A stretch of DNA of 45,522 nucleotides from Deltaproteobacteria bacterium (lineage in GTDB: Bacteria > Desulfobacterota > JAFDED01): assembly GCA_019310535.1 (NCBI GenBank), contig JAFDED010000027.1:1-45522 (forward strand), written 5' to 3'. The position numbers were made by a program, and so were the translations under genes. The notes below the pieces were generated by a model. The model worked only from the letters and a program-made list of their open reading frames with translations. It searched no databases and was not told the origin of the DNA. Each line of letters starts with the position of its first letter. Position 1 is the stretch's first letter. Positions 6,766 through 44,951 of the stretch are shown here, one piece after another.

Positions 6766-7296
6766 TCACTGACCTGGAAGTGAAGTTAAAAATCGGTTAG
6801 GAAGGATTTTATGCCTGGAACTTATACGGTTGGCTTTGCTGGTCATCCAATCCACGTGAATTTTTACCACAGCGGTATTTATGATTCCCTTTTCCTCCAT
6901 GGGCTTAGAATAATTAGAAGGGTCGAACTTTCGGATCATTTGCTCTAAGATACGTCTTTTTTCCTCATCGTCCTCTACGACCTCAGCCGTCCCGAAACAT
7001 ACGACACTTTCGTAAATCTGGCTGATGCCACAGCCCTGATCCCATGTCACCTGCGGGCCCGGCTCATCCACCAGGAAACAAACGCGGGGATTGTCCCGCA
7101 ATATATCCATCTTTCTGCCTTCCAGACCACTATGGAGGTATATGGATTCGTCGGCATACAGGTAATTCATGGGCACCACGTAGGGACCTTCATCAGTGTT
7201 CATCCCCAGGCGGCCAACGGGCATGCGGGCCAGCAAGGCTTCTATTTCCCTTCGATCCTGCATCATTCTCTCCTTGCGACGCGGATATACCTTCAT
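6766..7296 (-). CDS. Pyridoxamine 5'-phosphate oxidase-like flavin-binding protein (NimA type)
   Basis: This 176-residue protein has the split-barrel FMN-binding fold of the PNPOx-like superfamily. It starts MKVYPRRKERMMQDRREIEA and has GRLGMNTDEGPYVVPMNYLY and IYLHSGLEGRKMDIL, the pattern of the nitroimidazole-resistance (NimA)/PNPOx-like branch. Members bind FMN, F420 or haem; the substrate is not predictable. The start at 7296 is set by AGGAGGT eight bases upstream. An upstream in-frame extension to 7368 has no such site. Its first 104 bases overlap the 3' end of the murG-HEAT gene in another frame on the same strand, so the two are probably translated from one transcript. Confidence 0.82.
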   Translation of the reverse strand: MKVYPRRKERMMQDRREIEALLARMPVGRLGMNTDEGPYVVPMNYLYADESIYLHSGLEGRKMDILRDNPRVCFLVDEPGPQVTWDQGCGISQIYESVVCFGTAEVVEDDEEKRRILEQMIRKFDPSNYSKPMEEKGIINTAVVKIHVDWMTSKANRISSRHKILPNRFLTSLPGQ

Positions 7297-9367
7297 GCGG
7301 TAACCTCCTGTTTTGGGATTCATTGGCAGTGATTGATGAAAAATCGCTTTTCTGCATTGAGGCAACAAGTGCTTTAAGCTCCGTTAAACTCTGCTTCAAG
7401 GGGAAGTTGGGCTTGAAGTCATTGCAGGTGACCAGGAAGGCTTCCATATGAAGAGAAACCTGAGGCCCTTTCACCACCCGTCGCCTCAGTAAATCCGCCA
7501 TGGCATCAATCGCTGCTTTTCGGATCTTCCACGATGGATGATAACGGAATGCCGCTATCACCCCCATGAAACCGGCATCCCGGCAAATCTTCCCCAGCGC
7601 AAGCAGCGACTCCCAGACCACCTCAACGTTGGAATCCTCCAGACAACGCCGGAGTAAATTCTCAAGGCTTCCCGGGTCGTCAATTTTTTGAGCCAATGCC
7701 GTTACGGCCCGGGCCGCTGCGGAGCGGGTTTCAAAATATGGATCCTCCAGGCCCAGATGGAGAATCCGGCGAACCGTCTCGTTCCAAACCCCCAACCATT
7801 GTAAAGCTTCCATGATGTCGCGGCGTACAAAACCAACAGGAATAAAATCCGCCCCCAGGAAACGCTGCCACACAGGAGCCGGCCGCTTTTTCTCCATGAG
7901 TTCCAGCAACAGGGGAAGCTTCTCGGAATATTTAATCAATCCCGCCACGCGAGCCCCCCTGCATAGTAAAAGAAAATCCTCCGTACTCAGTGCACAATCA
8001 ACTTTGTATTGAATATAGCGACGCTCCATATTCGACATGCCACTCACCGCTCTCGTTCCGCGGGCTTTCAATAAGGTGGCAATACGGTCCAGCGGCAGCG
8101 CGGCCCATGCAGTCTCATTGTTATTATTATAGGCGGCAGGAGAAGGGAAAAGCACGCCTCTTCCTTCTAAAAGAGCCTGTACTTGACGCACAACACGATC
8201 CCTGGCATCCTGAAAAGCCATATCCCTGGCCTTGTGTCCCATATCGCGGAGCTTATCCGGATCGCTCAGGAGGCGTTCGATAGTCATGAACAGCTCGCGA
8301 CCTTTTACTTCAAATACCCTCTGACCGTTATCCAGGACAGGATGTTCGAAAAGTACCACGGCCGCCCCTTTTCGCTGCAAAACCATTGCATTGTGCACCT
8401 GGTGGTCTGCTGCTACCTCAGCCTTGGGCACAACGACCGATGGAAGGCCGCAGAGCATGATCTCATTGAGCGTCCCCGCCCCTGCGCGGCAGATTATCAG
8501 GTCAGAGGCTGCATAATATTTATCAATATGCTCTATATATCCGACCTGCCGGTACCAGGAAAGATCTGACTCGCGGAGACCAAATTCCGCCATGCGCCGG
8601 GTCGTATCGGCCTGTGGATCATAGTCCCACCCCTCTCTTCCCTGTCCGGTGGCATGGATGAAGGTCAAGCCCTCCAACCCTGAAAGGTGTGCCAATGCCT
8701 CAACCGCGGCATGATTGATGGCGCGAGAACCCTGGCTGCCCCCGAAGGCAAGAATCACTTTATTCCTGACATCTATCCCCAGCTCTTTTCGACTTGACTC
8801 TTTATCCCGTCTTTGAATTTCCTTGCGGACGGGGTACCCCACTAGAGAAACTTTTTCTATGGGAAAATGATCTGCACTCTCCGCAAAGCTAATCCCGATG
8901 CAATCCGCCATGGCTCCGGCAAGTCGGTTCATTTTGCCAGGAATCACATTTTGCTCGTGGATAAAGCAGGGTATCCTCAGAAGCCCGGCTTTTTTGAGTA
9001 GAAACCAGGCAAGCACAGTAGGCGCGGCAACATATCCACCCATAGCGATCAGCAGATGAGGCCGGAACGAGAGAAGAATACGGATGGCCTGAGACACCCC
9101 CACGGCATTGACTGCGGACATTTTAAGAAATCGCAAGGGGTTTTTTACTGAAGAAAAGGGTTCCGAACGAATGAAGCGGATCGGGTATCCACGCCGAGGG
9201 ATCACCTGTTCTTCGATATTCTTTCGGCTTCCCACGAAAAGGAACTCGCTGCCCGGGTGCTTCTCTTTAAGAGCGTCAGCAATGGCTACGGCGGGATAAA
9301 TATGTCCTCCCGTCCCTCCTCCGCACAGGAGAAATCTAAGATTATTTTTTGAAGTTTTCATATCCAC
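7193..9367 (-). CDS. murG: MurG glycosyltransferase fused to a C-terminal HEAT-repeat-like region
   Basis: Residues 8 to about 402 are a complete MurG: UDP-GlcNAc transfer to lipid I to make lipid II, on the inner face of the cytoplasmic membrane. Visible motifs are LLCGGGTGGHIYPA (13-26), GGYVAAPT (110-117), HEQNVIPGKMNR (137-148), FGGSQGSRAIN (208-218) and the UDP-GlcNAc site RAGAGTLNEIMLCGLPSV (294-311). MurG is normally about 360 residues; here roughly 320 more follow. After a linker with NNNN (414-417), residues about 440-665 are alpha-helical with HEAT-like units (EDPYFETRSAAARAVTALAQ, DSNVEVVWESLLALGKIC, PSWKIRKAAIDAMADLL). The last 34 residues lie out of frame within the next gene and look unlike protein under selection. 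Start is GTG 9367 or ATG 9361. It lies away from murE/murF. Confidence 0.88.
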   Translation of the reverse strand: MDMKTSKNNLRFLLCGGGTGGHIYPAVAIADALKEKHPGSEFLFVGSRKNIEEQVIPRRGYPIRFIRSEPFSSVKNPLRFLKMSAVNAVGVSQAIRILLSFRPHLLIAMGGYVAAPTVLAWFLLKKAGLLRIPCFIHEQNVIPGKMNRLAGAMADCIGISFAESADHFPIEKVSLVGYPVRKEIQRRDKESSRKELGIDVRNKVILAFGGSQGSRAINHAAVEALAHLSGLEGLTFIHATGQGREGWDYDPQADTTRRMAEFGLRESDLSWYRQVGYIEHIDKYYAASDLIICRAGAGTLNEIMLCGLPSVVVPKAEVAADHQVHNAMVLQRKGAAVVLFEHPVLDNGQRVFEVKGRELFMTIERLLSDPDKLRDMGHKARDMAFQDARDRVVRQVQALLEGRGVLFPSPAAYNNNNETAWAALPLDRIATLLKARGTRAVSGMSNMERRYIQYKVDCALSTEDFLLLCRGARVAGLIKYSEKLPLLLELMEKKRPAPVWQRFLGADFIPVGFVRRDIMEALQWLGVWNETVRRILHLGLEDPYFETRSAAARAVTALAQKIDDPGSLENLLRRCLEDSNVEVVWESLLALGKICRDAGFMGVIAAFRYHPSWKIRKAAIDAMADLLRRRVVKGPQVSLHMEAFLVTCNDFKPNFPLKQSLTELKALVASMQKSDFSSITANESQNRRLPHEGISASQGENDAGSKGNRSLAGPHARWPPGDEH

Positions 9368-33573: not shown

Positions 33574-33902
33574 TGATGATTCCCAGGAGGCCGTAATTCT
33601 TGTCGTCCCGCATCATGAAGGGACAGGTTCCAAACCCGCCTTTACCTCTTGTAGGTCAAGAGCACAATCCTGACCGGACTGTTTTGAAAGTACCATTTGC
33701 ACCAGCAAGTGTCAATTACCTGTGATCTAACGCTGTTAATTGTATAACATCCGATCACCATATCTTCCGATTTTTCATAATTGACGCACAAGCCTCTCTC
33801 CTCTCTATTTCGTTCCGCAAAAAGTAGTGGTATATAATATTTGGGTGGCATACAAACGTAATTTCACAGATAACCCCTGAGGAGAATATGAGGAGAAATT
33901 CT

Positions 33903-34535
33903 ATGGTAGAGCCCGTCAGTCTCACTGTTTATAGCTGCTATATCTGACCCTATGCTTACAGGGCCATGGAGTGGCTCTATAAAGTCAGAGAGAGTTCGGA
34001 CGGAAAGCTGCGCCTGGTGTGGAAATCCTTTCTCCTGGAGCAGATAAATTCAACACGGGGACCTGAATGGAAGGTATGGGAGGACGAGGGTTTCAAAAGC
34101 CGCGATCTGCCCCCTCTGGAGGCGGCAAAATGCGCCGCCCTTCAGGGAGAGGCCGCGTTTGACGCCTTTCACCAGCGATGTTTCCGCGCCCGGCACCGGC
34201 AAGGCAGATCCGTTGCCGAGAAGGAGGTGTTGCTGGATGTGGCCCGCGAGGCAGGCCTGGATGTGGATCGCTTCCGAAGGGATATTGAGAGCGGAATCCA
34301 GCGCCCCCTCGTGGCCGGGGATCATGAGGAAGCCGTAAAGCAATGGGGAGTCTTCGGAGTCCCCACCCTAGTCTATCCCGCGGGCGAGGCCGTGTATTTA
34401 AAACTGGCCCCAGGAGAGTGGGAAAGTCGAGAAGACGACGGCCTCTTCGACCAGCTCTTAGCACTTTTCGCCACAAGGCCGTATTTGCTTGAGGTCAAAA
34501 AGCCTGAGCCCGTGAGGGTCACCAAGAAGCGTTAA
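33903..34535 (+). CDS. DsbA-family thiol/selenol oxidoreductase, probable selenoprotein (in-frame UGA)
   Basis: Read through TGA at 33945-33947, the frame gives 210 residues starting MVEPVSLTVYSCYI-U-PYAYR. This is the thioredoxin-fold beta strand and active-site helix of the DsbA/FrnE (2-hydroxychromene isomerase-like) family, with selenocysteine where homologs have the first Cys of CPYC. Cys12 and Sec15 form a CxxU motif, while the usual second Cys is Ala18. The cis-proline loop VFGVPTLVYP (Pro154) is present downstream. The ATG at 33903 has an excellent AGGAG seven bases upstream; the only start after the UGA, ATG 33966, would give a protein with no active site and has no ribosome site. 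A SECIS-like hairpin follows the UGA. A -10-like TATAAT lies at 33833-33838. Recoding is inferred, not shown. Confidence 0.85.
33956..33982 (+). promoter_or_regulatory. Bacterial SECIS-like hairpin
   Basis: Twelve bases after the UGA begins a 7-bp stem AGGGCCA/TGGCTCT (33960-33966 with 33972-33978, one G-U pair) closing a 5-base loop TGGAG. After a single C-A mismatch, three more pairs (TTA/TAA) extend the stem. The loop begins 19 bases after the UGA and has G in its second position. This fits the published bacterial SECIS consensus (apical loop 16-37 bases downstream, G among the first two loop bases). Confidence 0.7.
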
Positions 34536-37255: not shown

Positions 37256-38602
37256 TTATTTCAGCCCTTTCAAATCGGCCTTTTTCTGGTCTGCAACCAC
37301 CACCAGAACATACGTATCAGGATCGAGATACCAGCCGGCCGCTCGCAGCACTTCCCCGGCTGACACCTGGCGGATGATAGAGGGATATCGCTCCATGTAC
37401 TCCAATCCCAGGTCGTAGAACTCCACCAGACTCAAGAAAGAGACTAACTTTGTGTTGCTGTCAAGCCGAAGGGGGAAGCTTCCTATGAGGTAGCGCTTCG
37501 CTCCCTCCAGTTCCTTGTGGGAAACAGGAGACCGGCGAATTTTTTGGATCTCCCCGAGCACAAGTTCAACGGCTTTTCCGGCCGATTCATTCTTGGTCTG
37601 GAGCACGACCTGAAAGCTTCCGGGATATGCGCGTGCATCCACAACACTGTTAACGGAATAAGCCAACCCCCTCCTGGTCCTGATCTCTTCCATAAGCCGC
37701 GATGCAAATCCACCGCCGCCCAGGATGTAATTCATGATCGATAGTGGATAATAATCGGGGTTTGAGCGCTTAATACCCTGCATACCCAGGACGATATTGG
37801 CCTGTGTGATGCTCATGTCTTTCAGGATGATTTTTCTCGATTCAGGAAAGTCCGCGCGGTAGTCCTCCTGGGGAACAGGGGCCGAAGCCCATTGCGCCAG
37901 CTTGCTTTTCAAAAGGGTCTGAAACTCTTCGAGATCAAAATCTCCTGCCGCCACCAGAATGGCGTTATTAGGGCGGTAATATTTCCGATAATGGGTCACT
38001 ATGTCCTGTCGACCTATTCCGGGAAGGGAGGTTTCCTTTCCCTCTGGGGGGTGCCCATAGGGCGTATCACCGAAAAGGGCCTCCAGAAACGCCCGCTGGG
38101 CCACCTCGCCGGGATCGTCATTTTTCGCCAGGATGGCCGCCTGAATCTCGGTCTTTTTCTTTACCACTTCCTCTTCCGGGAATGCGGGGTTGAGCAGAAT
38201 CTCGCTTAACAATGAAATCCCGCGGTTCAGGTCCTTTGTAAGCACCTTCAGAGAAAAGGAGGAAAAGTCCTCAGTACATTCGCTTCTCAGCGATGCTCCC
38301 AGGAAATCAAGCGCTTCGCTGATCTCCGCCGCCGTATGGGTACGCGTCCCTGAAGAAAGCAGAGACGAGGTAAGGTTAGCCAATCCTTCCTTTCCCCGGG
38401 GATCAGCGCTGGAACCGCCTTTGATCAACAAGCGCAAATAGACCATGGGAAGATGACGCTGTTCTGAAGCGATGAAGGTGAGGCCGTTCTTCCAGTGAAC
38501 TTTCTTCACGGCGGGGATGCCGGATGCCTGGGAAATTCCGAAAATAAGAATACAAAGCATACAGCCGGCGGTCCATCCCATTGTTTGTTTTCGCACCCTC
38601 AT
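37256..38602 (-). CDS. M16 family peptidase-like protein, lacking the zinc site
   Basis: This 448-residue exported protein (signal peptide about 1-27, GWTAGCMLCILIFGISQASG) has the two-domain M16 fold: HLPMVYLRLLIKGGSSADP, then the segment where active members have HxxEH but here reads GKEGLANLTSSLL. The zinc ligands are therefore missing. The C-terminal domain keeps the R/Y pair in RTRRGLAYSVNS used by M16 enzymes for substrate carboxylate binding. This is the arrangement of heterodimeric M16B peptidases: an inactive subunit with R/Y beside an active subunit with HxxEH. AGGAGG precedes the ATG. It starts 12 bases after the stop of the active partner. Confidence 0.88.
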   Translation of the reverse strand: MRVRKQTMGWTAGCMLCILIFGISQASGIPAVKKVHWKNGLTFIASEQRHLPMVYLRLLIKGGSSADPRGKEGLANLTSSLLSSGTRTHTAAEISEALDFLGASLRSECTEDFSSFSLKVLTKDLNRGISLLSEILLNPAFPEEEVVKKKTEIQAAILAKNDDPGEVAQRAFLEALFGDTPYGHPPEGKETSLPGIGRQDIVTHYRKYYRPNNAILVAAGDFDLEEFQTLLKSKLAQWASAPVPQEDYRADFPESRKIILKDMSITQANIVLGMQGIKRSNPDYYPLSIMNYILGGGGFASRLMEEIRTRRGLAYSVNSVVDARAYPGSFQVVLQTKNESAGKAVELVLGEIQKIRRSPVSHKELEGAKRYLIGSFPLRLDSNTKLVSFLSLVEFYDLGLEYMERYPSIIRQVSAGEVLRAAGWYLDPDTYVLVVVADQKKADLKGLK

Positions 38603-38614
38603 GACAGCCTCCTT

Positions 38615-40018
38615 TTACCGGCACTGAGTTGTTTTGGAATGCAATTGAGATTTCTCGAGAGGTGCCGACTTTTTTGTTTTTTCTGGAACCAGAATGCCTA
38701 TTGTTCTGTTTTCGCTTCGAAAATACTTCCTTGCCACCTTCTGGATGTCCTGGGCGCTGACATTTCGAATCCCGGTGAGATACTGTTTGAGTTTTCTCCA
38801 CCCTCCGCTGATCTCGTAACGGGCCAACAGCATGGCCTGGTAAAAGAGCGAATCCAGCCCGAATATGAATGAGGCCTCCAACTGGTTTTTGGCCTTCTGG
38901 AGTTCCGGGCCTTTTATCGGCTCGCGTTTGAATGCGTCCAACTCCTGCTCGACGGAGTTCTGAACCTGTTCAAAGGTTTTGCCAGGAAGGAGTTGGGCAA
39001 ATACTGAGAAGAGCCCAGGGTCATGCGAGATTCGATTATAGTCAGCATTCGCCTCCAGGGCAAGAGGAGTATCGCTGACCAGCGCACGATAGAGGCGTGA
39101 GCTCTTGCCGGTGGAAAGGACGGCGTTCAGCACCTCAAGGGCGAAGCTGTCGGGATGGCTCAAATTGGGTACGTGGTAGAGAAAAGTGCATGCGTGTAAA
39201 CGAGACTGCCTCCTCAATGTAACACGGCGTTCTCCGATTTGGGGTGGCATCAGTCCCCGTACGGAGGGAGGTGTGGGTCCCCTGGGAATGGAACCGAAGT
39301 ATTTCTCTATCTGCGCGAGAAGGCGATCGGTTTGAAAATCTCCCGCCACGACCAGGAAAGCGTTGTTGGGAATGTAATACGTCTCATAGTAGTGCCGGAT
39401 ATCATCCAGTGTCAACCGGGCAATATCCGACATCCAGCCCACAACAGGCCACTGGTAGGGGTGAGACCGATAAGCCAAGGCATTGGCTTCCTCCATCAGG
39501 ATCGCCAGGGGTTGATCCTCTGTGCGCAGGCGCCGTTCCTCCATGACCACCATCTTTTCTGTCCGGAAGTCTTCTTCCCGCAGGGCCAGGTTGGCCATTC
39601 GATCGCTCTCCAATTCCATGGCAATGGATATCCGATCTGCGCTTAGTGTCTCAAAATAGGCGGTATAATCCTTGGAGGTGAAGGCATTAATCCTCCCGCC
39701 AGCCTCCTGGATGATCCGGGAGATCTCCTCCGGTCCCACCTTCTGCGTGCCCTTAAACATCATGTGCTCAAGCAGATGGGAAAGACCGGTTTTCCCCGGC
39801 TCCTCATTCCTGGATCCCACCCGGTACCATACCTGAAAGGTAATCACCGATGCCTTATGATTTTCCAGCAGGATAACCTTTAACCCGTTATCCAGAGTTT
39901 TTTCCCTTACCTGCAGTCCGATACCAGCAATAGAAGAAAAGGGAAAAAGGATCATGGGCAGGAGGATCACCATTGCCCACCAGCGATGCCAAAGCTTTAT
40001 GCCGAATTCCGTCTTCAT
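38615..40018 (-). CDS. M16 family zinc peptidase, catalytic subunit
   Basis: This 467-residue exported protein has the inverted zinc motif HLLEH in GKTGLSHLLEHMMFKGT, followed by the downstream glutamate region EKMVVMEERRLR. The signal or anchor segment is about residues 8-30 (WHRWWAMVILLPMILFPFSSIAG). The C-terminal domain is present but the clear R/Y signature seen in the partner is not obvious. It likely forms a heterodimer with the next gene's product in the periplasm to degrade peptides. ATG 40018 follows AAAGGAGAG by nine bases; the frame extends to 40114 without a site. Confidence 0.9.
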   Translation of the reverse strand: MKTEFGIKLWHRWWAMVILLPMILFPFSSIAGIGLQVREKTLDNGLKVILLENHKASVITFQVWYRVGSRNEEPGKTGLSHLLEHMMFKGTQKVGPEEISRIIQEAGGRINAFTSKDYTAYFETLSADRISIAMELESDRMANLALREEDFRTEKMVVMEERRLRTEDQPLAILMEEANALAYRSHPYQWPVVGWMSDIARLTLDDIRHYYETYYIPNNAFLVVAGDFQTDRLLAQIEKYFGSIPRGPTPPSVRGLMPPQIGERRVTLRRQSRLHACTFLYHVPNLSHPDSFALEVLNAVLSTGKSSRLYRALVSDTPLALEANADYNRISHDPGLFSVFAQLLPGKTFEQVQNSVEQELDAFKREPIKGPELQKAKNQLEASFIFGLDSLFYQAMLLARYEISGGWRKLKQYLTGIRNVSAQDIQKVARKYFRSENRTIGILVPEKTKKSAPLEKSQLHSKTTQCR

Positions 40019-40286
40019 AAAGGCAACTCTCCTTTGTAACTGTTTAATCATTGTGTAACAAACCCTTGGCTGTACTTGGATTCGGGCCTCAACAGGACCG
40101 TGTTCCCGTCTCAAGAAAAGGTTGAGGAAAACCGGAAATCATGCTTTCAACGATCATCAGTATTATTGTGGTCTATTTGAACACACTTAGCAACTTTTTT
40201 TCACCTGGATGTTTCTGAAATGCCCAGGGAATCATAGGGAATGGAGCACTAAGGTATTTATAAAAAAAAATTTGAAACTTTCATTT

Positions 40287-42425: not shown

Positions 42426-44951
42426 ATGGAACTAAAAAACTCTACCCGGGGACTCATTGCAATATTCTGTTGCATTGTTTTTTCGTGGAGCACCTCAAAT
42501 GCGGACACATCCACCCACTGGGAGCCGGCGGGTTACAGCGGCGGAGGTTTGTTTCTCCAGATTGTGGTGGATCCCGTGGAGACCAATGTTGTCTACCTAG
42601 GGAGCGATGTGGCGGGGATGTATAAGAGCACGGATCATGGGGAAACCTGGAGTTCCATAAACGTGGGGCTGGTAAGCAGAGAGATAGCCGGTATCGACAT
42701 GGATCCATCGAATCACCTGCAACTTTGGCTTGGAACCCCTACAGGGCTCTACAAAAGTCAAAATGGCGGAAGTTCGTGGTCCCTGGTCAACGCTGATATT
42801 CATTGTTTTAAACATGTAAATTACCATGCGATAGACATCAGCCGGGACGGTCAGACCATTCTTGTGGCAAGCCATGATCTGGCCGGTGATACGGATGGTT
42901 CTGGAAGCGGCAATTTTAGTGGAAAACTCTACCGGAGTCCGGACGGAGGGGCAACCTGGAGATTGATCCGACAATTTCCAGGTACCCGAATCCCCTCGGT
43001 TATGTTCGACCCTTATACATCCAATCGAGCATTTCTCCTTGTTGTCGGACAGGGCGTTCTCCGTTCTATGGACGGCGGCCTGACCTGGGAGGATTTTTCC
43101 ACCGCTTTACCGTCAGGCCTGAATTTGAAAAATTTGGATATCGGCCAAACGACGGTTTACATTACCGCTGCTCCCACCCGGCCCTTTAAAAGCGGCAAGG
43201 ACAGCGCCGCATGGGAATCCATTCGCACGAACTTACAGGAGGAAGATACAGATGATTCCAACTTTGATCCCATAAGAGTCTCACCCTCATCCGATAATAC
43301 CGTCTACCTGGCACACGCCGGGTGGCCGTCGGTCTTCTACAAATCCACCAACGGCGGCCAGAGCTGGGTTGGCACGGAGGTCAGCGGCCATTACCGGTTC
43401 GACACAATCAATGCTCCCCACCAAACCTGGAATAACCCTTTTCAGGGAGCCACCTGCATTACCATCGATCCGTCGAACTCAAACCGCCTCTATTACACAA
43501 CATGGTGGGGTGTCTGGCGGAGCGATGACGGGGGGATTAATTGGACGGAAAAGGTAGTCGGGGCTCAAAACACCTGCTGTACCGATGTAGAATTCATCGA
43601 TAATACGCTCCTTTCCTCCCACATGGATACCGGTGTTTTACGCAGCGTCGATCAGGGCGCCCATTGGCTTCCGGGGTTCCCGCAGGAAGGTCAGGACACG
43701 GGCTTGATCGACCTACATGCATGGGGCATCGAACGAGGCGCTGATGGAAAAATCTATTCCGGTCTGGCTACCAATCTCGGCCCCAGAGTCTATCGAAGCG
43801 ATGACAATGGTGTGTCATGGCAAAACAAGTCAGGTGGACTTCCCGCTGCAGCGGCTAACGTAGTGGATAACCAGGATATTTTTCTTGTTTCACTGGCTGC
43901 TGATCCTAACAATTCTGGGACTCTCTATGTGGGCATTGACAACTTATTAGAGAATGGACTATTCCGTACGACAAATTACGGTGATACCTGGGTCCAGCTT
44001 TCCAACCCGCCCGGGTCCGGAACCAGCATTGAAAACGTTTTGATCAAGTGCCTGGAGGTTGATCCCACCGATTCAAATCGGCTCTTTGCGGGGCTCTACT
44101 GGGACGGTCTGTGGTACAGCGAAGACGGAGGGCAGAGCTGGTATCTTGCCAGGGGCAACAATGTAAACCTGGATAACAGCAGTGTGCAAATGATCGTGGC
44201 CCGTGAGGATGGAACGGTCTTCGCTGCCTATGACGATGGGCTGTATAAAAGCGTGGATCACGGCCACACGTTTTCCCGGACTTTTCCTGTTTTGCAGAAC
44301 CTTGGGGAAAATACGATTGAATACGTGGAATCCATAGCCTTCAATCCCGCCGATACCAATGAAATATTTGTCTCCACAGCCAAAAGATATCCCCTCTGGT
44401 TCAATCGGGGTTCCGTGTGGCGTACTAATAACGGCGGGGCTGACTGGACAGAGATCACGGGAGACTTGCCTGTACGAAATGTCGTGGACCTCGCCTATCG
44501 GAACGGATATCTCTATGCGGCTACCTGGTGCGCCAATGTTTACCGTACGAATATATCTTCTATACAATCAACTCCAACCTGCCAGGTGAACCTCCGATCC
44601 GACAACCCTTCCTATTCCCCGTGGGACACCATGAACATTTTAGCAGACATTACTTGTAACACCACCGTGGACATCTACCTTGTCCTGCTCGACCCTGACG
44701 GGTGGATGATCTCCTGTATCTATCCCGACGATGTCAACTGGAACAATCAAGTTGTCTCGTATTTTAGAAACGTCCCATTGAACGGATACTGGCGGAACAT
44801 CCCCATCTTCCGGTTCCCGTTCGAATCGGACGACACTCTCGGTATGTATACAGGGTACCTGGTCTTCACTCGTTCCGGCTCGGACCCTTCCCGGTTTGCC
44901 AACTGGCTGGCATATAGCAGTATGACCTTCAGTCTTAACCCTCAACAATAA
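42426..44951 (+). CDS. Secreted multi-Asp-box beta-propeller protein (BNR/GH74/sortilin-like)
   Basis: This 841-residue protein has a signal peptide (cleavage after SNA, about residue 26). About twelve Asp-box (BNR) motifs of the form SxDxGxTW follow at fairly regular spacing through about residue 700, for example STDHGETW, SPDGGATW, SMDGGLTW, STNGGQSW, SDDGGINW, SEDGGQSW and NNGGADW, plus one degenerate copy (SGKDSAAW). This count fits two beta-propellers, as in GH74 xyloglucanases or sortilin-type domains. The last 120 residues form a separate beta-rich domain. It could be a glycoside hydrolase or a binding/surface protein; catalytic residues were not identified. AAGGAG precedes the ATG. 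It is monocistronic and its low-GC leader differs from its neighbours. Confidence 0.82.
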   Translation: MELKNSTRGLIAIFCCIVFSWSTSNADTSTHWEPAGYSGGGLFLQIVVDPVETNVVYLGSDVAGMYKSTDHGETWSSINVGLVSREIAGIDMDPSNHLQLWLGTPTGLYKSQNGGSSWSLVNADIHCFKHVNYHAIDISRDGQTILVASHDLAGDTDGSGSGNFSGKLYRSPDGGATWRLIRQFPGTRIPSVMFDPYTSNRAFLLVVGQGVLRSMDGGLTWEDFSTALPSGLNLKNLDIGQTTVYITAAPTRPFKSGKDSAAWESIRTNLQEEDTDDSNFDPIRVSPSSDNTVYLAHAGWPSVFYKSTNGGQSWVGTEVSGHYRFDTINAPHQTWNNPFQGATCITIDPSNSNRLYYTTWWGVWRSDDGGINWTEKVVGAQNTCCTDVEFIDNTLLSSHMDTGVLRSVDQGAHWLPGFPQEGQDTGLIDLHAWGIERGADGKIYSGLATNLGPRVYRSDDNGVSWQNKSGGLPAAAANVVDNQDIFLVSLAADPNNSGTLYVGIDNLLENGLFRTTNYGDTWVQLSNPPGSGTSIENVLIKCLEVDPTDSNRLFAGLYWDGLWYSEDGGQSWYLARGNNVNLDNSSVQMIVAREDGTVFAAYDDGLYKSVDHGHTFSRTFPVLQNLGENTIEYVESIAFNPADTNEIFVSTAKRYPLWFNRGSVWRTNNGGADWTEITGDLPVRNVVDLAYRNGYLYAATWCANVYRTNISSIQSTPTCQVNLRSDNPSYSPWDTMNILADITCNTTVDIYLVLLDPDGWMISCIYPDDVNWNNQVVSYFRNVPLNGYWRNIPIFRFPFESDDTLGMYTGYLVFTRSGSDPSRFANWLAYSSMTFSLNPQQ

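What the first reader, a model, noticed from the sequence alone, without database searches (positions are those of the whole stretch)
33903..34535. Unannotated-looking selenoprotein: DsbA-family protein with CxxU active site
An in-frame TGA at 33945 sits exactly where DsbA/FrnE-like proteins have the first Cys of CPYC. The sequence upstream of the TGA encodes the expected beta strand and has a strong Shine-Dalgarno, the frame continues 195 codons after it, and a SECIS-like hairpin starts 12 bases downstream. The motif is unusual: CYIU-PYA, so the redox pair would be Cys12/Sec15 rather than the classic CPYC. Known selenoproteins include thioredoxin-fold members in deltaproteobacteria; I cannot say whether this subgroup is already described.
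Basis: partly seen in the sequence, partly recalled or inferred. Interest (0 to 1): 0.9.

Follow-up and report, generated by a model that had tools for sequence, protein, structure and literature searches.

The report
DsbA selenoprotein with displaced cysteine
This gene carries an in-frame UGA codon that is kept at the same place in 15 related genomes of the same subtype, so it likely makes a small selenium-containing redox enzyme of the DsbA type whose selenocysteine would pair with a cysteine on the opposite side from the usual one.

Summary
TGA 33945-33947 lies in an otherwise open 210-codon DSBA-domain frame (33903-34535), and the genome has tRNA-Sec (anticodon UCA), SelA, SelB and a SelD whose own gene has an in-frame UGA. 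The same codon is TGA in 15 other genomes with the same motif (phylum of records titled Nitrospinota) and in 3 more distant relatives; 106 database relatives have Cys there. Codons just upstream of the TGA vary largely silently. Sequencing error, pseudogene and chance are effectively excluded. The hairpin after the UGA is consistent with a bacterial SECIS but not proven.
Other relatives read Asp-x-x-Cys/Sec-Pro-x-Cys or Asp-x-x-Cys/Sec-Pro-x-Ala; this clade reads Cys-x-x-Sec-Pro-Tyr-Ala and also has Cys77. No member with Cys at the Sec place was seen.
Sec DsbA proteins are known: a 2026 catalogue lists UxxC (form 1) and DxxUP (form 2). CxxUP was not in the passages I read. Most likely an unannotated monoselenol oxidoreductase with an internal Cys12-Sec15 step (inferred). 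New variant of a known kind.

The parts
33879..33902 (+). translation start region: GAGGAG (33879-33884) before in-frame ATG 33888, and AGGAGA (33891-33896) before ATG 33903
   Evidence: sequence; which ATG is used is not settled
33903..34535 (+). read-through gene: 210-residue DSBA-domain protein with predicted Sec15, stop TAA at 34533-34535
   Evidence: translation; Pfam DSBA above cut-off; model pLDDT 92, pTM 0.88
33936..33938 (+). Cys12 codon (TGC), three residues before the Sec; Asp in the relatives outside the clade
   Evidence: Cys in 16 of 16 clade loci, Asp in 107 of 107 aligned database relatives with Cys at the Sec place
33945..33947 (+). in-frame TGA, predicted Sec15, at the place of the catalytic Cys of DsbA-type proteins
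   Evidence: TGA in 16 of 16 clade loci
33960..33978 (+). SECIS-like hairpin: arms 33961-33966 and 33972-33977 (one further A-T pair 33960/33978), loop 33967-33971 TGGAG
   Evidence: all six pairs possible in 12 of 12 distinct clade sequences; no compensatory change; no Rfam match
34131..34133 (+). Cys77 codon (TGC), second clade-specific cysteine
   Evidence: 16 of 16 clade loci, 0 of 107 aligned relatives with Cys at the Sec place
33966..34535 (+). 189-codon ORF after the UGA, the form under which the nearest public relative (P0002, 189 aa, 98% identical) is listed
   Evidence: it would lack the first beta strand and the active site

Best explanation
The UGA at 33945 is likely read as selenocysteine, giving a 210-residue thioredoxin-fold (DsbA-type) enzyme predicted to act through one selenol, Sec15, at the start of helix 1, with Cys12 as its likely internal partner. 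Shown by sequence: the UGA is conserved; the Sec-insertion genes are present; the usual second active-site Cys at +3 is Ala; a Cys replaces the usual Asp at -3; a further clade-specific Cys77 is present. Inferred: the selenolate attacks a disulfide, persulfide or peroxide, and Cys12 then attacks the Se-bound intermediate to give a Cys12-Sec15 selenylsulfide, which a thioredoxin-like reductant reopens. The redox partner has thus probably moved from the +3 to the -3 side of the nucleophile. The substrate is unknown; the gene neighbourhood in the phylum titled Nitrospinota (siroheme synthesis, a nitrite/sulfite-reductase-type protein, DUF971) hints at nitrogen or sulfur assimilation there, but the window's own gene stands alone.
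Against: No selenium or protein measurement exists. SECIS support is weak: no Rfam match, fold energy not unusual against synonymous recodings for the clade, no compensatory pair change. tRNA-Sec presence is not diagnostic, as 344 of 395 genomes of the own phylum have it, and G354, one of the three DxxUPxA genomes (82% complete), has no match. P0006, a short metagenome contig inside the clade, has Trp at the Sec place, so Sec is not strictly kept. Codons -9, -8, -6 and -5 also carry replacements. Cys77 could be the partner instead of Cys12, or neither. No coordinates were available, so the Cys12-Sec15 and Cys77-Sec15 distances were not measured. The clade rows are related to each other, so 16 of 16 is far fewer than 16 independent events.
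Confidence: 0.6

Rival explanations
1. Same selenoprotein, but Sec15 is resolved by Cys77 in the helical part (or Cys12, Sec15 and Cys77 together bind a metal or metalloid), and Cys12 plays another part.
For: Cys77 is as tightly tied to Sec as Cys12: 16 of 16 clade loci, 12 of 14 further clade rows, and it also occurs in one of three DxxUPxA loci (L028), which lacks Cys12, so it may be the older partner.
Against: Position 77 is Ser in 2 of 14 further clade rows (P0031, P0045); Cys12 bounds the same loop as Sec15 in the model. No distance for Cys77 was measured.
Confidence: 0.25
2. Same selenoprotein without an internal partner: a monoselenol enzyme using an external low-molecular thiol, as the single-Cys DxxCPxA relatives may do.
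For: 98 of 108 motif-bearing database relatives have Asp at -3, Cys at the Sec place and Ala at +3; the nearest solved structure, DR2335, is single-Cys (PMC8945050 passages).
Against: Two cysteines absent from all 107 aligned Cys-type database relatives are kept in the Sec clade.
Confidence: 0.25
3. UGA is an ordinary stop; a 14-codon leader peptide is followed by a 189-residue protein starting at ATG 33966.
For: The nearest public relative is listed that way (P0002); 15 of 30 domain-bearing genes of the window end in TGA, so UGA is a normal stop here; a weak AGGG lies before ATG 33966.
Against: The stretch before the UGA is conserved as protein in frame and aligns with strand 1 of full-length relatives; the short form would lack that strand and the catalytic residue; the Sec machinery is present.
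Confidence: 0.03
4. Sequencing error or decaying pseudogene.
For: One clade row (P0006) has Trp at this codon and a long branch.
Against: The same TGA in separately assembled genomes of two phyla, with open frames on both sides.
Confidence: 0.01

Closest known systems
DsbA-like selenoprotein 'form 2' (PF01323, motif DxxUP, example MDP6049977.1) in the catalogue of PMC13188914
   Same: DSBA domain, Sec followed by Pro at the catalytic Cys place; loci L028-L030 found here fit the DxxUP motif
   Different: Cys instead of Asp at -3, plus Cys77; MDP6049977.1 itself was not available, so common descent was not tested
DsbA-like selenoprotein 'form 1' (PF01323, UxxC, example NIP15863.1); also DsbA 1 and DsbA 2 of PMC2398784
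   Same: Sec at the first catalytic place of a DSBA domain; 14 loci here read DxxUPxC
   Different: second active-site Cys at +3 is Ala here; the DxxUPxC and DxxCPxC loci form a separate branch (100/100)
DsbA 3 (pfam01323, UxxV, 5 sequences) of PMC2398784
   Same: Sec DsbA without a +3 Cys
   Different: Val at +3; residue at -3 not stated in the passages read
DR2335 of Deinococcus radiodurans (PDB 7DK9, 7DKA), single-Cys DsbA-like protein
   Different: Cys instead of Sec, Asp at -3; no experimental function reported according to PMC8945050 (passage)
FrnE (DR_0659; PDB 5CNW and others) and Rv2466c (PDB 4ZIL, 4NXI)
   Same: DsbA-type fold
   Different: FrnE has CP(W/F)C and, in D. radiodurans, a C-terminal CxxxxC proposed to regenerate it (PMC8945050 passage); neither feature here

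Membership tests
bacterial selenoprotein | in-frame UGA aligned with Cys or UGA in relatives, with coding sequence on both sides | tested here: met
bacterial selenoprotein | Sec synthesis and insertion genes in the same genome | tested here: met
bacterial selenoprotein | SECIS hairpin just downstream of the UGA | tested here: inconclusive
   six-pair hairpin with G in the apical loop possible in 12 of 12 distinct clade sequences, the lowest-energy fold in 11 of 12, but no compensatory changes, ordinary energy, no Rfam match; bSECISearch not available
bacterial selenoprotein | selenium in the protein | not testable with these tools
   needs mass spectrometry or 75Se labelling
DSBA domain family (PF01323) | score above Pfam gathering cut-off | tested here: met
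   55.6 against 25.6 bits
DSBA domain family (PF01323) | thioredoxin fold with helical insertion and conserved Pro (cis-Pro place) | tested here: met
   model pLDDT 92, DsbA-type structures as best matches, P154 invariant in the 23-row alignment; cis geometry itself not checked
classical dithiol DsbA (CxxC) and DsbA-like form 1 (UxxC) | Cys three residues after the catalytic Cys/Sec | tested here: not met
   Ala18; Ala in 16 of 16 clade loci
DsbA-like form 2 (DxxUP) | Asp three residues before the Sec | tested here: not met
   Cys12; Cys in 16 of 16 clade loci; motif taken from PMC13188914
DsbA-like form 2 (DxxUP) | homology with the example MDP6049977.1 | not tested
   the record was not available
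FrnE subfamily | CxxC (in many members also a C-terminal CxxxxC) | tested here: not met
   UPYA and no such C-terminal motif in the translation; feature from PMC8945050
Rcas_1661 family (seleno)lipoprotein (NF041057) | score above the curated cut-off | tested here: not met
   28 against 190 bits

The most novel reading that the evidence does not exclude
A Sec-obligate DsbA subfamily with a rebuilt active site: the redox partner jumped from +3 to -3 of the nucleophile (Cys-x-x-Sec-Pro-x-Ala) and a second partner, Cys77, was recruited, giving a Cys-Sec-Cys relay or metal site unlike the other DsbA proteins compared here; in the phylum titled Nitrospinota it would work with a DUF971 protein beside siroheme and nitrite/sulfite reductase genes.
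Probability: 0.35. Interest if true: 0.7.

Novelty: new variant of a known kind. Interest (0 to 1): 0.52.

Why it matters
If true, it shows that the resolving cysteine of a thioredoxin-fold enzyme can change sides in evolution, here in a clade where the nucleophile is Sec and no Cys version was seen. That makes testable what Sec allows that Cys does not. It also points to an annotation fault: the nearest public relative (98% identical) is deposited as a 189-residue 'DsbA family protein' without its active site, and 67 of the 175 database rows aligned have no residue at the Sec column or at -3, as expected if gene callers start after the UGA (for those rows the DNA was not seen).

Tried and rejected
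SECIS by energy: the mean z against synonymous recodings was -0.27 for 12 clade sequences, -1.08 for 3 DxxUPxA, -0.96 for 14 DxxUPxC and +0.34 for 5 DxxCPxC. The UGA-bearing outgroups lean the expected way, but the clade itself does not stand out, because the encoded Arg-Ala-Met/Thr-Glu-Trp-Leu itself favours the hairpin; dropped as proof. In one of the 12 (L077) another fold is lower in energy. A narrower count, all six pairs possible in 12 of 12 distinct sequences against a mean of 0.23 under synonymous recoding, is suggestive only, since the rows are related. Compensatory changes: none. Rfam: nothing.

tRNA-Sec as a discriminator: dropped, because 344 of 395 genomes of the own phylum have it.

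UGA read as Trp (because of P0006): rejected for this genome, since 15 of 30 domain-bearing genes end in TGA, the tRNA is a tRNA-Sec, and 106 of 108 motif-bearing database relatives have Cys there.

Functional neighbourhood: the window gene was not seen with those neighbours; the gene order in the phylum titled Nitrospinota (10 of 10 loci read, out of 15 clade genomes there) could not be carried over, and no relative of the DUF971 protein rang in the own genome (without a positive control).

Widening the sample: the held class of the window genome and that of G034 hold one genome each, so those searches added nothing.

Distances for Cys12-Sec15 and Cys77-Sec15: not possible, the tools return no coordinates.

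Literature: searches that showed me no paper on this subtype are 0 papers; 8 of 2,523 papers listed; two searches looked for DR2335 and its PDB codes. They cover an open-access library only. Ten papers were opened, by passages only (PMC13188914, PMC9312934, PMC2398784, PMC8318568, PMC9402790, PMC12013277, PMC5029168, PMC8945050, PMC1088965, PMC1794560). Of the nine papers listed four were not opened (PMC9404770, PMC7539508, PMC3527542, PMC2660430). Two papers on new selenoprotein families cited in PMC13188914 (PMC12013261, PMC9879109) are not held, and no supplement could be read, so the subtype may be in print unseen.

Rows dropped before counts: of 54 loci 9 had no motif (L027, L034, L036, L038, L048, L049, L051, L052, L056) and 7 (L009-L015) are second copies of genomes counted under L069-L076, leaving 38; one of 108 database motif hits (P0045) is a false motif; one search left out P0030 (134 aa). 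The tree used 38 loci, 21 full-length and 20 truncated database proteins, chosen by hand for spread. The hit lists behind the database proteins are capped at 120 rows each (173 and 4,225 hits).

Full report
What is there. The frame from ATG 33903 to the TAA ending at 34535 holds one in-frame stop, TGA at 33945-33947. Read as U it gives MVEPVSLTVYSCYI-U-PYAYRAMEWLYK..., 210 residues. An in-frame ATG at 33888 with its own GAGGAG is an alternative start. Pfam calls the product DSBA (55.6 bits, cut-off 25.6). The gene stands alone: a PMT_2 glycosyltransferase gene runs away from it on the left, and a RidA/YjgF gene on the opposite strand faces it on the right.

Can the organism insert Sec? The window is contig C9 of a 191-contig genome (95% complete, 5.9% contamination). 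That genome has tRNA-Sec above the Rfam cut-off, recognised by ARAGORN with anticodon TCA, selB above cut-off, selA above cut-off, and selD above cut-off with one internal TGA that reads ...ASGUASKM..., the stretch where I recall SelD proteins having Sec or Cys. UGA is otherwise a normal stop: 15 of 30 domain-bearing genes of the window end in TGA. tRNA-Sec is common in the phylum (344 of 395 genomes), so this is a necessary condition met, not proof.

Is the UGA conserved? One scan of GTDB genome contigs returned 7 loci, all with TGA at this codon; five carry Nitrospinota or Nitrospinae in the record title, two only 'bacterium'. A search of 395 genomes of the own phylum gave 3 further close full-length relatives (E 5e-58 to 2e-46), all with TGA here (L028-L030); L029 also shows a TAG and L030 a second TGA, which come 187 and 186 residues later and are taken as their true stops. 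A search of the 18 held genomes of the phylum of L009 gave 16 matches at E 1e-15 or better, all with one TGA: 15 are of the same subtype as the window protein, and one (G406, L080) is a DxxUPxC protein. tRNA-Sec is above cut-off in all 7 genomes of L009-L015; of the three own-phylum genomes G034 and G082 have it and G354 (82% complete) has no match. Counted once per genome, 38 loci with a readable motif are: CxxUPYA 16, DxxUPxC 14, DxxCPxC 5, DxxUPxA 3. Among 176 database proteins fetched by two searches (capped lists), 108 showed a motif: DxxCPxA 98, DxxC..S 6, DxxC..V 2, CxxWPFA 1, and one false motif; 68 showed none. An alignment-based count, free of the motif pattern, gives Asp at -3 in 107 of 107 database rows with Cys at the Sec place.

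Is the part before the UGA coding? In the 16 clade loci codons change while the residue stays: -7 Thr in 15 (four codons), -4 Asn in 15 (two codons), -3 Cys in 16 (two), -2 Tyr in 16 (two), -1 Val in 15 (two); -9, -8, -6 and -5 also show replacements, in part conservative (Ile/Val/Leu, Met/Val). With the loss of strand 1 and of the catalytic residue in a shorter product, this argues strongly against a stop followed by an independent start at 33966.

The subtype. A tree of 79 rows (selection stated under Tried and rejected) puts the 16 CxxUPYA loci in one supported clade (99/93) with 13 database proteins that begin only after the UGA and one protein, P0006, with Trp at the Sec place. No member with Cys at that place was seen. 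The DxxUPxC and DxxCPxC rows form a separate branch (100/100). Two cysteines mark the clade. Cys12, three residues before the Sec, stands where the others have Asp. Cys77, in AAKCAALQGE, is present in 16 of 16 clade loci and 12 of the 14 other clade rows, in one of three DxxUPxA loci, in 33 of all 67 truncated database rows, and in none of 107 Cys-type database rows, 14 DxxUPxC or 5 DxxCPxC loci. The second active-site Cys at +3 is Ala in the clade. So the clade lacks the ordinary partner and has two possible new ones. That these are tied to Sec rests on one clade, not on repeated events.

SECIS. After the UGA, 13 bases lead to a six-pair stem with loop YGGAR, possible in all 12 distinct clade sequences and the lowest-energy fold in 11 of 12. 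The Ala codon in the stem (+6) is GCC in 16 of 16, while the Ala codon at +3 is GCT 4, GCC 9, GCA 3. Relatives outside the clade form hairpins at the same place with other stems and G-containing loops (L028 GGUCUG, L030 GGUU). Against this: no compensatory change, no unusual energy for the clade, no Rfam match.

Neighbourhood elsewhere. In 10 of 10 loci read (of 15 clade genomes in the phylum of L009) the gene is followed directly by a stand-alone GBBH-like_N (DUF971) gene and lies near, in the other direction, a uroporphyrinogen-III methyltransferase and a nitrite/sulfite reductase gene; a DUF4202 gene lies between in 7 of 10, and in some loci a further unnamed frame. Names come from L013 alone: the methyltransferase is over the NCBIfam cut-off, while the reductase piece (413 aa, cut by the locus end) has NirA family as best NCBIfam match at 161 bits, below its cut-off of 523; the other loci were matched to L013 by tblastn. 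This suggests a role near siroheme-dependent nitrogen or sulfur assimilation in that phylum. No DUF971 relative was found in the window's genome (no positive control).

What is known. The 2026 review PMC13188914 (passages) lists DsbA-like form 1 (UxxC) and form 2 (DxxUP, MDP6049977.1, citing PMC5029168); 'CxxUP' and 'UPYA' do not occur in its text. PMC9312934 (passages) lists a DsbA-like UxxC protein and, separately, a crotonase/enoyl-CoA hydratase family entry; PMC2398784 (passages) lists DsbA 1-3 with UxxC, UxxC and UxxV; PMC1088965 and PMC1794560 (passages) list DsbA-like selenoproteins, in PMC1088965 with UxxC. The main text of PMC5029168 has no occurrence of crotonase, enoyl-CoA or DxxUP. 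The passages seen of PMC12013277, PMC9402790 and PMC8318568 name no CxxUP form. So Sec in DSBA proteins is known, and so is a Sec DsbA without the +3 Cys; the Cys at -3 was not in anything I read.

Verdict. A real selenoprotein gene by all sequence evidence (my odds for Sec decoding about 0.95), belonging to a new subtype of a known kind. The partner of the Sec is a choice between Cys12 (my pick), Cys77 and none, and needs chemistry to settle.

Noticed in passing
L009, L011, L014, L015, L081-L085, L089: Conserved order in the phylum titled Nitrospinota: DsbA-Sec gene directly followed by a stand-alone DUF971 (GBBH-like_N) gene, near uroporphyrinogen-III methyltransferase and nitrite/sulfite reductase genes, in 10 of 10 loci read.
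   Followed up: partly
P0006 (233 aa, metagenome contig of 1123 bases): A clade member with Trp at the Sec place but Cys12 and Cys77 kept, on a long branch: a decaying copy, an assembly error, or a natural loss of Sec.
   Followed up: partly
L031, L033, L035, L037, L040, L042, L045-L047, L050, L053-L055, L080: Fourteen further DSBA-type loci with in-frame TGA in a DxxUPxC motif, matching the catalogued UxxC form 1.
   Followed up: partly
L023: The genome's selD has an in-frame TGA (ASGUASK); another long frame of the same locus contains a stretch that looks TusA/SirA-like to me (by eye).
   Followed up: no
window 7193-9367 (-): Glycosyltransferase family 28 domains and HEAT repeats in one 723-residue frame.
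   Followed up: no
window 37256-40114 (-): Two adjacent Peptidase_M16 genes.
   Followed up: no
window 42426-44951 (+): 841-residue protein with Sortilin-Vps10/BNR repeats.
   Followed up: no
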